Shown: in pieces, positions 15,759-18,112 of the stretch
Position numbering within the stretch: the stretch's first letter is position 1
Layout of the letters: each line of letters begins with the position of its first letter
Virus record (IMG/VR): IMGVR_UViG_3300031651_000021
Coordinates: 1-23,895 of that record
Reading direction: 5' to 3' (one strand)
DNA: 23,895 nt
Source: a virus
The notes under the pieces: generated by a model
What the model was told of the DNA's origin: nothing
Seen by the model: only the letters and a program-made list of their open reading frames with translations
Database searches by the model: none
Position numbers and translations under genes: made by a program

Positions 15759-16487
15759 ATGAAACAGAATCAGATTATCGCTATTGTGTCAGGAAAGAAA
15801 GCGAGAGCTACGAAAACTATTACTGAAATACATCATGGATGGAAAGATAGCGAACTTACAGGCATAGTTCGCACCTACGAGCCAAAAGACGAGGAGGGCG
15901 AAAGATTCCCTTCTGAAAGCCGTGAAGTGCAAATTCGAGCAGCTCGTATTATTCCGAAAGTCACGGAAATACTGAGGGATTTTTATGATTTTGTTTTGAC
16001 GCAGGAATATGCGAATCAACTTGCCAAAGCTGATGTTAAAATAGATGATAAAACTTTGCTGGTTGGTCTGCCTGTTACTACTATCCTGTTCCTGGAAAAA
16101 CAGGTTGTAGATTTATTGGCTTTTGCTAAAAATCTTCCGGCACTACCTACAGATAAGGTATGGAAATATGACTCGGGCAAAGACTGTTTCGTTTCCGATA
16201 TAGAGGAAACCAACAAAACAAAGAAAGTACCGAAAGTCATAACAAAATGTGCAGCTACGAAAGAGCACCCTGCACAAACGGAACTAATCACAATAGACGA
16301 AACTATTGGCCATTGGAAAACTATACATCTTTCCGGTGCTGTTACCGTTGAGTATAAAGAAAAAATAATAAAGCGTCTTGAGGTTTTACAGGATGTTTTG
16401 AAAATGGCAAGGGAAGAAGCTAACAGTCAGGAAGTTTCAATGCTAAAAATGGGTGACAGTATATTTTCTTATATTTTTGCTGATTGA
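15759..16487 (+). CDS. DUF7873-like phage protein
   Basis: A 242-residue protein with SD AAGGAG. The sequence follows a family I know from phages and actinobacterial genomes (DUF7873 by memory): NQIIAIVSGKKARA at the start, ELTGIVRTYEPKDEEGERFP (33-52), VGLPVTTILFLEKQVVDL (about 102-119), TKKVPKVITKCAATKEHPAQ (about 154-173), and a C-terminal KMAREEANSQEV then GDSIFSYIF. Function is unknown; no catalytic motif is obvious. It follows the ligase group and precedes the tRNA region, so a role in nucleic-acid metabolism is only a guess. The TGA stop overlaps a TTGACA hexamer (16484-16489). Confidence 0.75.
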   Translation: MKQNQIIAIVSGKKARATKTITEIHHGWKDSELTGIVRTYEPKDEEGERFPSESREVQIRAARIIPKVTEILRDFYDFVLTQEYANQLAKADVKIDDKTLLVGLPVTTILFLEKQVVDLLAFAKNLPALPTDKVWKYDSGKDCFVSDIEETNKTKKVPKVITKCAATKEHPAQTELITIDETIGHWKTIHLSGAVTVEYKEKIIKRLEVLQDVLKMAREEANSQEVSMLKMGDSIFSYIFAD

Positions 16488-16509: not shown

Positions 16510-16542
16510 TTAAACTTAGATTCAGTCTAAACACGATATCCT
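16510..16542 (+). other. Upstream rod strand of permuted tRNA unit A
   Basis: This strand can pair, in order, with the strand after the unit A 5' piece: 16510-16517 with 16661-16668 (8 bp), 16524-16528 with 16649-16653 (5 bp), and 16535-16542 with 16632-16639 (8 bp, two G-U). The last would be the variable arm of a class II tRNA. Confidence 0.5.
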
Positions 16543-16638
16543 TGCAGGTTCGAGACCTGCTCGGGCAACCAGTTATTATTTTTATAAACTGCCCGGTGGC
16601 GGAATTGGCAGACGCATAACCGAAAGGTTGTAGGGTAT
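16536..16638 (+). tRNA. Circularly permuted Leu-like tRNA (unit A), 3' piece before 5' piece
   Basis: Order in DNA: variable-arm 3' strand (16535-16542), T arm GCAGG-TTCGAGA-CCTGC (16544-16560), acceptor strand TCGGGCA (16561-16567), A73, CCA (16569-16571), linker of 18 nt, then acceptor strand TGCCCGG (16590-16596), TG, Leu-type D arm GCG-GAATTGGCAGA-CGC (16599-16615), and variable-arm 5' strand (16632-16639). The acceptor strands pair 7 of 7 (one G-U). Where the anticodon arm should be, TAACC-GAAA-GGTTG (16617-16630) forms a stem closed by a tetraloop, so no anticodon is present. Either a two-piece tRNA-like RNA not used for decoding, or a tRNA needing further processing. Processing at both ends of the linker (RNase P and a 3' nuclease) would leave two annealed pieces, as in two-piece tmRNA. 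Confidence 0.65.
16572..16589 (+). other. Linker of permuted unit A
   Basis: 18 nt between the encoded CCA and the matching 5' acceptor strand, ending TTTATAAAC. Unit B has a 22-nt linker with the identical last nine bases at the identical position. Confidence 0.7.
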
Positions 16639-16668
16639 TATAAAATTCAGACTATCGCTCAAGTTTAA
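16632..16668 (+). other. Downstream rod strand of permuted unit A
   Basis: Partner strand of 16510-16542. The three helices are nested and collinear, separated by internal loops of 9/6 and 7/6 nt. This region also contains TTCAGACTATCGC, part of which could instead pair with 16841-16846 downstream of unit B. Confidence 0.45.
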
Positions 16669-16677
16669 TCCGCAATG

Positions 16678-16699
16678 CGTATCCGGTCGAGTTTCACAT
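16678..16699 (+). other. Upstream rod strand of permuted unit B
   Basis: 16678-16685 (CGTATCCG, after GCAATG) can pair with 16833-16840 (CGGATGCG, 8 bp, one G-U), and 16693-16699 (TTCACAT) with 16812-16818 (ATGTGAA, 7 bp), extending the anticodon stem of unit B. Confidence 0.5.
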
Positions 16700-16700
16700 G

Positions 16701-16799
16701 TTATAGGTTAGGTTGTCGGTTCGATTCCGACCCCCTTCTCCATGCTATCATTCATTTTATAAACGAAGGGGTAGCTCAAGTTGGTCAGAGCATGACCTT
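16701..16799 (+). tRNA. Circularly permuted tRNA (unit B), 3' piece before 5' piece
   Basis: Order in DNA: anticodon-stem 3' strand GGTTA (16706-16710), variable loop GGTT, T arm GTCGG-TTCGATT-CCGAC (16715-16731), acceptor strand CCCCTTC (16732-16738), U73, CCA (16740-16742), 22-nt linker, acceptor strand GAAGGGG (16765-16771), TA, D arm GCTC-AAGTTGGTCA-GAGC (16774-16791), A26, anticodon-stem 5' strand TGACC (16793-16797). Acceptor strands pair 7 of 7 by Watson-Crick. The anticodon stem pairs 5 of 5 (one G-U) across the two pieces. The break lies in the anticodon loop, so the anticodon depends on how or whether ends are joined: TT from the 5' piece plus TTATA would give UUA, but this is not established. 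U73 would fit Gly, Cys or Thr identity. Confidence 0.7.
16743..16764 (+). other. Linker of permuted unit B
   Basis: 22 nt between the encoded CCA and GAAGGGG. It ends TTTATAAAC, identical to the end of the unit A linker. Confidence 0.7.
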
Positions 16800-16811
16800 A
16801 ATTAGACTAAA

Positions 16812-16840
16812 ATGTGAATTAAACGGAGAAAACGGATGCG
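16812..16840 (+). other. Downstream rod strand of permuted unit B
   Basis: Partner of 16678-16699. The adjacent GCGATA (16841-16846) could also pair with TATCGC (16653-16658). Confidence 0.45.
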
Positions 16841-16991: not shown

Positions 16992-17567
16992 TTGAATTAC
17001 GCAAAAAATACAACAGTTTCAATTGAGCGATCCCGGCAGGAACTTGGGGTAATACTAAGACGAGCGGGGGCGAATAAAGTAATGCTCGGCTGGGACAGTG
17101 ATATAACATTTGTGGCTTTTGCTATTGATGGTATACCGGTAAAGCAGACGATTGTAATGCCGCCGAAGGAAGATTACTCACAAACCGAGCAGGGCAGGGA
17201 TAGGAACGAGCAATCAATGTTAAAAGCATGGGATCAGGCATGCCGGCAGCGGATGAGGGAGCATGTAGTATTATTGAAGGCTAAACTTATAGCAATTACC
17301 CTTGGCTTTCGTACAGTTAAGCAGGAATTCATGGCTGATATCTGCTTGCCGAGTGGAAATACAATTGGGCAGGAATCATCAACCTCCTCCTCCGAACCGT
17401 GCGGGGCCGTGCGCAAACCGGTCCCGGCGGTTTATTTATTGCAGGGTAGAGCAGTCAGGTTAGCTCGCGTGGCCCATAACCACGAGGTCGCGGGTTCGAA
17501 TCCCGCCCCTGCTAATTGGGCCCGACAATATAGAAAAGAAGAGAATAGAGTGCGTCCGGTACACTAA
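16992..17567 (+). CDS. Conserved phage hypothetical protein, 3' end overlapping a tRNA
   Basis: Starts with TTG (16992) and reads NYAKNTTVSIERSRQELGVIL (residues 2-22), KVMLGWDSDITFVAFAIDGIPV, RQRMREHVVLLKAKLIAI, FMADICLPSGNTIG. This is a widespread phage family (from memory: YAKGT-V-x-x-S...GW-x-x...AF-x-x-G...WEQACRQRWRAL-L-IKAKLEA...LPDG-TVG) of unknown function. Homologues end soon after the LPDG-TVG motif. Here the frame continues into Pro/Ser-rich sequence and then runs through the tRNA at 17440-17514 to 17567, so the last 50 or more residues are unlikely to be native. GGAG lies about 15 bases upstream of the TTG. Either the true stop was lost by rearrangement or the tRNA was inserted here. 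Confidence 0.65.
   Translation: MNYAKNTTVSIERSRQELGVILRRAGANKVMLGWDSDITFVAFAIDGIPVKQTIVMPPKEDYSQTEQGRDRNEQSMLKAWDQACRQRMREHVVLLKAKLIAITLGFRTVKQEFMADICLPSGNTIGQESSTSSSEPCGAVRKPVPAVYLLQGRAVRLARVAHNHEVAGSNPAPANWARQYRKEENRVRPVH
17440..17514 (+). tRNA. Initiator-like tRNA(CAU), contiguous
   Basis: Acceptor TGCAGGG / CCCTGCT (6 bp, with 1-72 U-U mismatch), TA, D arm GAGC-AGTCAGGTTA-GCTC, anticodon arm CGTGG-CCCATAA-CCACG with anticodon CAT at 17475-17477, variable AGGTC, T arm GCGGG-TTCGAAT-CCCGC, A73 at 17514. No CCA is encoded. The unpaired 1-72 and the A11:U24 pair are bacterial initiator features; the three G-C pairs of the anticodon stem are only partly kept (29:41 is U-A). Position 33 is C instead of the near-universal U. 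It lies inside the 3' part of the ORF at 16992. Confidence 0.82.
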
Positions 17568-17652: not shown

Positions 17653-17800
17653 GGCCGAGAATTGCAAGGTGTAGCATCAAAACTATATGCCCCAGCCAAG
17701 ATAGTCGAGAGCGTTTTGCCGTCGCTCGTTAAAAAGGAAAGCTTGTTTACAGTTTCCGATGATGAGAGCGGGGTCGCGGGTTCGAATCCCGCCTCGGCTA
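17653..17800 (+). pseudogene. Disrupted or insertion-bearing tRNA-like locus (unit C)
   Basis: The 3' side is clear: variable GGGTC, T arm GCGGG-TTCGAAT-CCCGC (17776-17792), acceptor CTCGGCT (17793-17799), A73; no CCA. 22 bases through the T arm (GGTCGCGGGTTCGAATCCCG and following CC) are identical to the initiator-like tRNA upstream. A matching 5' acceptor strand GGCCGAG (17653-17659) pairs 7 of 7 with one G-U and is followed by a D-loop-like AAGGTGTA. Between these lie about 100 extra bases: an insertion before an anticodon stem CGCTC / GAGCG (17723-17727 / 17766-17770) and a 38-nt loop carrying a GGAAA / TTTCC hairpin. It may be a tRNA remnant, a recombined tRNA, or an attachment-site-like 3' tRNA end. 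Confidence 0.45.
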
Positions 17801-18040: not shown

Positions 18041-18104
18041 GTGTGAAAGGTGTGAAAGGTGTGAAAGGTGTGAAAGGTGTGAAAGGTTAGAAAGGTTAGA
18101 AAGG
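18041..18104 (+). repeat. Tandem 9-bp GTGTGAAAG array (7 units)
   Basis: Five exact GTGTGAAAG units and two GTTAGAAAG units end 9 bases before the ATG at 18113. Each unit boundary contains GAAAGG, complementary to the CCUUUC part of the 16S 3' tail. A related array lies at 23130-23174. Confidence 0.9.
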
Positions 18105-18112
18105 ATATTGAA

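What the first reader, a model, noticed from the sequence alone, without database searches (positions are those of the whole stretch)
16535..16668. Circularly permuted Leu-like tRNA (unit A)
Seen directly: a complete T arm, 3' acceptor strand and encoded CCA (16544-16571) lie upstream of a 5' acceptor strand and Leu-type D arm (16590-16615). The two acceptor strands pair 7 of 7. A variable arm of 8 bp forms only between the outer ends of the unit (16535-16542 with 16632-16639), as expected if the gene is permuted at the variable arm. Permuted tRNA genes are established for red algae, some other algae and a few archaea, with splicing by tRNA endonuclease; in bacteria the known precedent is the permuted two-piece tmRNA. 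A permuted tRNA in a bacterial phage would be new or nearly so.
Basis: partly seen in the sequence, partly recalled or inferred. Interest (0 to 1): 0.9.

Follow-up and report, generated by a model that had tools for sequence, protein, structure and literature searches.

The report
Paired tRNA-mimic RNAs beside DUF7873
A phage carries two small RNAs shaped like transfer RNAs with their halves in swapped order, next to a gene of unknown function, and the same gene-plus-RNA pair recurs in well over a hundred other phages and bacteria, so it looks like a widespread and so far undescribed RNA-protein partnership rather than a one-off odd tRNA gene.

Summary
Unit A has the T arm, acceptor 3' strand and ACCA upstream of the acceptor 5' strand and D arm, with 7/7 acceptor pairs and an 8-pair closing stem. 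It is one of two such units (A; B at 16685-16825) directly downstream of a DUF7873 (PF25283) gene. DUF7873 with one or usually two permuted tRNA-like units is a conserved cassette: a strict detector finds units just downstream of DUF7873 in 71/80 phage and 70/80 bacterial loci, against 6 hits in 1.6 Mb of flanks and none in 1,600 shuffles. A covariance model raises this to about 153/160. Acceptor, T, D and closing stems covary strongly.

The reading as a split tRNA gene that is spliced is not supported. No anticodon loop exists: it is replaced by a tetraloop hairpin (unit A) or by an open basal stem (most others). The nearest known kind is YrlA, the bacterial Y RNA whose tRNA-like domain is permuted in the same way. 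These RNAs score below the YrlA threshold, have different basal motifs, and sit beside DUF7873 instead of Ro/TROVE, which two thirds or more of the carriers tested lack. Best reading: a Ro-independent, Y-RNA-like tRNA mimic with DUF7873 as partner. Binding and function are inferred.

The parts
15759..16487 (+). DUF7873 protein gene (242 aa), proposed protein partner, directly upstream of the RNA units
   Evidence: PF25283, 264 bits against a cut-off of 27; relatives next to permuted units in about 153 of 160 loci
16510..16517 (+). Unit A outer stem, 5' strand TTAAACTT
   Evidence: pairs 8/8 with 16661-16668 (sequence; fold)
16524..16528 (+). Unit A second basal stem, 5' strand AGTCT
   Evidence: pairs 5/5 with 16649-16653 (fold); the equivalent AGTCT/AGACT stem can be read in L137 and, with one G-U, in L136 (sequences)
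16535..16542 (+). Unit A closing stem at the variable-arm position, 5' strand
   Evidence: 8 pairs with 16632-16639; covaries in L136, L137, L139, L140, L141, L153, L178, L180, L181, L210
16544..16560 (+). Unit A T arm (GCAGG TTCGAGA CCTGC)
16561..16571 (+). Unit A acceptor 3' strand TCGGGCA plus encoded ACCA
   Evidence: pairs 7/7 with 16590-16596
16572..16589 (+). Unit A linker between the acceptor strands (18 nt)
   Evidence: sequence; the linker lengths count from the base after the acceptor 3' strand, so 22 here and mostly 6-10 in relatives
16590..16596 (+). Unit A acceptor 5' strand TGCCCGG
16597..16615 (+). Unit A D arm, Leu-like (TGGCGGAATTGGCAGACGC)
   Evidence: same D arm in relatives L136, L137, and nearly so in L140
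16616..16631 (+). Unit A hairpin ATAACC-GAAA-GGTTGT in the place of the anticodon arm, no anticodon loop
   Evidence: relatives keep a hairpin here with other letters (ACCA-gaaa-TGGT, ATCAG-gaaa-CTGAT, GGC-gaaa-GCC)
16632..16639 (+). Unit A closing stem, 3' strand AGGGTATT
16649..16668 (+). Unit A 3' basal part: AGACT, conserved ATCGCTC, AAGTTTAA outer stem
   Evidence: motif recurs 3' of first units in many loci
16685..16691 (+). Unit B 5' conserved motif GGTCGAG (consensus RTCGAYC)
   Evidence: conserved columns in alignment A3
16693..16699 (+). Unit B outer stem 5' strand TTCACAT (3' strand ATGTGAA 16812-16818)
   Evidence: sequence; the free fold pairs this region
16705..16710 (+). Unit B closing (anticodon-position) stem AGGTTA, pairs with TGACCT 16793-16798
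   Evidence: mean closing-stem score z = 11.8 over 47 second units
16715..16742 (+). Unit B T arm, acceptor 3' strand CCCCTTC, TCCA
   Evidence: Rfam YrlA 31.9 bits, below gathering 69
16765..16791 (+). Unit B acceptor 5' strand GAAGGGG (7/7) and D arm
16802..16810 (+). Unit B 3' internal-loop motif TTAGACTAA
   Evidence: conserved columns in A3
16819..16825 (+). Unit B 3' motif TTAAACG, about 27 nt after the D arm
   Evidence: UUAARYG-type motif at this place in 50 of 70 second units

Best explanation
Unit A is the first of two tandem, circularly permuted tRNA-mimic noncoding RNAs that form a cassette with the DUF7873 gene just upstream. Shown by sequence comparison: the T, acceptor and D arms of a tRNA are kept in rotated order; the anticodon arm is replaced by a basal stem (in most members) or by a tetraloop hairpin plus a basal stem at the variable-arm position (Leu-type first units such as A); the basal part ends in an internal loop with conserved motifs and an outer stem; the cassette is conserved in phages and bacteria of many phyla. 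Inferred: the RNAs are made with or from the DUF7873 transcript; DUF7873 (or a complex with it) holds the basal module; the tRNA-like head docks on a host tRNA-binding enzyme, such as a modification enzyme, RNase P or an exonuclease like PNPase. The RNA would thus tether or gate that enzyme, as YrlA tethers PNPase to the Ro protein Rsr. It is not decoded in translation and is not spliced into a tRNA.
For: Linkage: units 0-800 nt downstream of DUF7873 in 71/80 phage loci (104 hits in 62 kb, 6 in 805 kb elsewhere) and 70/80 bacterial loci (101 in 63 kb, 0 in 820 kb); CM R1 recovers most of the rest. Named phages: Arthrobacter Mimi, Gordonia Phendrix and Ziko, Rhodococcus NiceHouse, Pseudanabaena Pam2, Rhizobium TM30, Vibrio D505, Klebsiella KpLz-2_45. 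Reverse test: a scan with an RNA pattern alone led to L049, whose upstream gene is DUF7873. In 24 Streptomyces genomes a full-length RNA hit at the DUF7873 locus occurs in 12/12 carriers; non-carriers have nothing above 53 bits. Covariation: 98.2% of cells paired against 69.0% in shuffles, 125 against 30 both-side changes; closing stems z = 11.1 and 11.8; Leu-type hairpin and closing stem covary. No other conserved neighbour gene. Where Ro/TROVE is present, separate YrlA-like units with a different basal motif (CTACTTC) sit beside it.
Against: No expression, processing or binding data. DUF7873 has no fold match, no detectable relation to TROVE and is slightly acidic (median pI 6.2), so RNA binding rests on gene linkage alone. 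About a third of units encode NCCA, which a pure mimic would not need. Six or seven loci have DUF7873 without a detected unit.
Confidence: 0.6

Rival explanations
1. It is a member of the known YrlA (bacterial Y RNA) family and the partner is a Ro/Rsr protein encoded elsewhere in phage or host.
For: Same permuted order of T arm, acceptor, D arm with an open basal stem; weak Rfam YrlA scores (31.9 bits B, 19.6 bits A); R1 core also hits YrlA-like units beside TROVE.
Against: All units tested lie below the YrlA gathering score. TROVE was found in only 10 of 30 DUF7873-bearing bacterial genomes and 5 of 30 phage records. Where both systems exist, the Ro-adjacent units are separate and carry another basal motif.
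Confidence: 0.17
2. Processed two-piece tRNA-like RNA: RNase P cuts at the acceptor 5' strand and the 3' end is trimmed and CCA-tailed, giving a charged but anticodon-less mimic, as in permuted tmRNA. LeuRS, which does not read the anticodon, could charge unit A.
For: Intact acceptor and T arm stack; ACCA with discriminator A in unit A; Leu-type D loop and a stem at the variable-arm position; A is the commonest base after the acceptor strand in first units.
Against: Linkers are mostly 6-10 nt and NCCA is encoded in only about a third of units. The acceptor sequences and D-arm types differ widely among first units, so no single charging identity is kept. No reading frame or tag as in tmRNA.
Confidence: 0.12
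3. Decoy or toxin-antitoxin module: the tRNA-like RNAs titrate a host tRNase, or act as an RNA antidote to DUF7873 as a toxin (type III-like).
For: Protein plus RNA cassette, widely spread and patchy (50 of 101 Streptomyces), often inside phage tRNA clusters; stand-alone module with no conserved neighbour.
Against: DUF7873 has no match in PADLOC or NCBIfam. From general knowledge, type III antitoxin RNA lies upstream of the toxin and is a pseudoknot repeat. Single copy in half of Streptomyces looks settled.
Confidence: 0.08
4. A circularly permuted tRNA gene that is spliced and rejoined into a translating tRNA.
For: Gene order and 7/7 acceptor pairing; rotated sequence folds as a cloverleaf.
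Against: Rotated unit gives no valid anticodon loop (ARAGORN reports an unassigned anticodon in a tiny loop, or a spurious intron); tetraloop conserved in relatives; no BHB endonuclease system expected in bacteria; known cases are algae and one archaeon (PMC3978253).
Confidence: 0.02
5. Chance, or the abutting halves of two decayed tandem tRNA genes.
For: Tandem tRNA arrays give the same order of halves; several pattern hits elsewhere are just that.
Against: No normal tRNA overlaps the units; acceptor strands pair and covary; conserved across phyla in a fixed place.
Confidence: 0.01

Closest known systems
YrlA (Y RNA-like A, RF02553) with Ro60/Rsr, RYPER with PNPase
   Same: Permuted tRNA-like domain (T arm, acceptor, D arm) on a basal stem; found in bacteria and phages; near a protein gene; in loci here the Ro-adjacent units also come two or more together
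   Different: Partner gene is DUF7873, not detectably related to TROVE; basal motifs RTCGAYC / UUAGACURA / UUAAACG instead of CUACUUC; Leu-type first units add a hairpin and open at the variable arm; below the Rfam threshold
Circularly permuted tRNA genes of algae and one archaeon
   Same: Order 3' half, spacer, 5' half; 7-bp acceptor across the spacer
   Different: Those give mature decoding tRNAs through BHB splicing (PMC3978253); here no anticodon loop exists
Permuted two-piece tmRNA
   Same: Bacterial, permuted, tRNA-like head with acceptor strands joined through a removable piece
   Different: No mRNA-like part or tag, no single charging identity kept, two units in tandem, DUF7873 linkage; only an 18-nt tmRNA fragment match in the window, outside the units, and a sub-threshold cyano_tmRNA match over unit B

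Membership tests
YrlA / RF02553 | Score at or above the Rfam gathering cut-off (69 bits) | tested here: not met
   31.9 bits (B), 19.6 bits (A); no gathering match at units in 31 loci
YrlA / RF02553 | Permuted tRNA-like domain on a basal stem | tested here: met
YrlA / RF02553 | Encoded near, and bound by, a Ro/TROVE protein | tested here: not met
   Neighbour is DUF7873; TROVE in 5/30 phage records and 10/30 bacterial genomes, elsewhere in the genome where checked; binding itself not testable here
YrlA / RF02553 | Binds PNPase; modified by TruB and DusA | not testable with these tools
Circularly permuted tRNA gene | Mature tRNA with 5-bp anticodon stem and 7-nt anticodon loop after rotation | tested here: not met
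   GAAA tetraloop hairpin; ARAGORN on rotated unit gives no valid anticodon
Circularly permuted tRNA gene | BHB or BHB-like motif at the outer junction | not tested
   no explicit BHB scan; the outer ends form stems
Permuted tmRNA | tmRNA covariance match and a tag-encoding part | tested here: not met
   Rfam scan gives only an 18-nt tmRNA fragment at 17775, outside the units, and cyano_tmRNA at 14.5 bits (gathering 70) over unit B
DUF7873 (PF25283) | Pfam gathering score for the upstream gene | tested here: met
   264 bits against 27

The most novel reading that the evidence does not exclude
A previously undescribed ribonucleoprotein system, independent of Ro60, found in phages and in hundreds of bacterial species, in which DUF7873 and two different permuted tRNA mimics form a dedicated particle. 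The tRNA-like head is the shared effector part, and the basal module was exchanged together with the protein partner (DUF7873 versus Ro).
Probability: 0.55. Interest if true: 0.9.

Novelty: new variant of a known kind. Interest (0 to 1): 0.82.

Why it matters
It turns one odd phage locus into a conserved protein-RNA cassette in many bacterial phyla (single copy in half of the Streptomyces species sampled) and in large phages, with a function for DUF7873 now open to test. It suggests that bacterial Y RNAs are one branch of a wider class of permuted tRNA mimics whose basal part is matched to different protein partners. It also warns that tRNA finders and Rfam miss these RNAs: no RNA feature was annotated at the units in the phage records read, and no Rfam family reached its threshold there.

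Tried and rejected
Similar DNA in the phage collection: none. PHROGs, NCBIfam and PADLOC for DUF7873: nothing above cut-off. PDB by sequence: nothing significant. Fold search of a confident model (pLDDT 90.7): no PDB or BFVD match at E <= 0.001; a second look gives 3kdq_A, function unknown, Z 9.7 but rmsd 8.2 over 147 residues, judged uninformative. hhalign of DUF7873 against two TROVE proteins: no relation. Conserved neighbour genes: only the antisense shadow of DUF7873 and, as I read them, spurious frames over the RNAs. Promoter and terminator consensus scan: at chance level. Papers: DUF7873 in none; key Y RNA papers (Chen 2014, Wang 2018, Sim 2018, Sim 2020) not held, so YrlA facts rest on PMC8394870 and general knowledge. 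Tandem-tRNA halves rejected as the cause: those hits overlap normal tRNAs.

Full report
The observation. The window is a 23,895-base virus record. At 16535-16639 the T arm, acceptor 3' strand and ACCA precede the acceptor 5' strand and a Leu-type D arm. The acceptor strands pair 7/7 and the outer ends pair over 8 positions, as reported. ARAGORN finds only an ordinary tRNA-Met at 17439-17515. After the D arm comes a closed hairpin, ATAACC-GAAA-GGTTGT, where an anticodon arm would be. Rotating the unit and running ARAGORN gives no usable anticodon. Outside the closing stem two further stems extend the unit to 16510-16668 (fold). A second permuted unit, B, follows at 16685-16825 and weakly matches the Rfam family YrlA (31.9 bits against a gathering score of 69). 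Unit A gives 19.6 bits.

The neighbour. The gene just upstream, 15759-16487, is DUF7873 (PF25283, 264 bits). It has no PHROG, PADLOC or above-cut-off NCBIfam match. Relatives were found in 73 phage records, and in viral contigs (167, of which 80 were kept) and bacterial genomes (at least 502, of which 80 were kept).

The test. A detector was written that asks for a 5-bp T stem with a TTCRANN loop, seven acceptor pairs across a linker, and a D arm. In the 80 viral loci it finds at least one unit within 800 nt downstream of DUF7873 in 71 and two in 33: 104 hits in 62 kb, against 6 in 805 kb of the rest of the same loci and none in 1,600 shuffled regions. In the 80 bacterial loci (Streptomyces, Nocardia, Actinomadura, Kibdelosporangium, Planctomycetes, Chloroflexi, Spirochaetes, cyanobacteria, Myxococcus and others) it finds units in 70: 101 hits in 63 kb against none in 820 kb. 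A covariance model of the second unit (R1) finds units in most of the loci the detector missed, including unseen ones at 77-94 bits. By my count about 153 of 160 loci then have a unit downstream on the same strand, and L211 has one on the other strand; a few loci are near-copies of each other. The two units lie a median of about 152 nt apart. Among annotated phages the stretch directly downstream of DUF7873 carries no annotated RNA gene at the units; in Vibrio D505 and Gordonia Ziko small hypothetical-protein genes are annotated there.

Independence of the two searches. A scan of viral contigs with an RNA pattern only gave 120 stretches. Most permuted-looking hits there were the abutting halves of normal tandem tRNAs. 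The pair in L049 was not, and its upstream gene proved to be DUF7873. Two others, L038 and L093, are permuted units without DUF7873 or TROVE in the record. In 24 Streptomyces genomes, R1 gives a full-length match (50-95 bits) at the DUF7873 locus in 12 of 12 carriers. In 12 non-carriers the best is a 52.7-bit core-only match. DUF7873 is present, once per genome, in 50 of 101 Streptomyces.

Covariation. On 31 second units, 98.2% of cells pair against 69.0% in shuffles, and 125 cells carry changes on both sides against 30; sliding the partner by one column drops pairing to about 50%. The detector demanded T, acceptor and D pairs, so these helices are partly selected; but the detector almost never fires elsewhere, and the letters vary at all acceptor positions. 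The closing stem was not part of the detector and scores z = 11.1 (first units) and 11.8 (second units) against partners shuffled between loci. For the Leu-type first units closest to unit A, both the hairpin in the anticodon place (ACCA-gaaa-TGGT, ATCAG-gaaa-CTGAT, GGC-gaaa-GCC) and the closing stem (CACTGCT/GGCAGTG, ATGTTGCC/GGCAACAT, TCCTGCC/GGCGGGG) keep pairing with other letters.

What it is not. It is not a permuted tRNA gene in the sense of Soma's review (PMC3978253), because no anticodon exists. It is not tmRNA. It is not the halves of two tandem tRNAs.

What it works like. YrlA is a bacterial Y RNA made of a basal stem that holds the Ro protein Rsr and a tRNA-like head with D, T and acceptor arms that binds PNPase and is modified by TruB and DusA (as reviewed in PMC8394870). 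Phage Ro/Y RNA systems have been suggested (PMC12282133, PMC7765460, PMC7824862). The RNAs here have the same head in the same permuted order, and most have the same opening at the anticodon stem. Three things differ. They are below the YrlA threshold everywhere looked at. The gene beside them is DUF7873, with no detectable relation to TROVE, and TROVE is absent above its cut-off from 20 of 30 bacterial genomes and 25 of 30 phage records that carry DUF7873 (viral records may be fragments). The basal motifs differ: RTCGAYC, UUAGACURA and UUAAACG against CUACUUC in units beside TROVE. In Streptomyces genome G041, and in Rhizobium phage TM30, both systems exist at separate places.

Mechanism. The best-supported reading is a Ro-independent, Y-RNA-like particle: DUF7873 holds the basal module and the tRNA-like head recruits a host tRNA-binding enzyme. 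The RNA anatomy and the linkage are shown; transcription, binding and target are inferred. A weakness is that DUF7873 is slightly acidic and has a fold without informative matches, so its binding surface is unknown. The main rivals are membership in YrlA with a Ro partner supplied elsewhere, and a processed, possibly leucylated two-piece mimic.

Novelty. No paper in the searchable library mentions DUF7873 and no Rfam family covers the RNAs at its threshold. The primary Y RNA papers are not in the library, so it remains possible that some of these units were once listed under YrlA. I rate it a new variant of a known kind, with high interest because the partnership is widespread and directly testable.

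Noticed in passing
window 17760-17800: A T-arm copy (GGGGTCGCGGGTTCGAATCCCGCC...GCTAATTG) that repeats the 3' half of the tRNA-Met at 17439-17515; it causes the tmRNA-fragment and weak YrlA matches there.
   Followed up: partly
L038:2722-3150: Three tandem permuted tRNA-like units in a 233-kb viral contig with neither TROVE nor DUF7873 in the record; the flank motif GCTTATTTC resembles the CTACTTC of Ro-adjacent units.
   Followed up: partly
L093:5780-5850: A permuted tRNA-like unit inside a Leu/Ser tRNA gene cluster, without DUF7873 in the 7.7-kb record.
   Followed up: partly
L303:299 and 498; L305:208, 363 and 950; L306:131: Ro/TROVE-adjacent YrlA-like units also occur two or more together and fall below the Rfam gathering score, so YrlA itself seems under-annotated.
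   Followed up: partly
window 18041-18105: Short tandem repeat GGTGTGAAA / GGTTAGAAA in an intergenic stretch.
   Followed up: no
L211:4453-4581 (- strand): Strong second-unit match (93.8 bits) on the opposite strand about 1.2 kb from DUF7873, the one locus with a different arrangement.
   Followed up: no
L126:5132-5200: Ordinary-order tRNA-like element (41 bits, Rfam tRNA) about 400 nt after DUF7873 that ARAGORN does not report.
   Followed up: no
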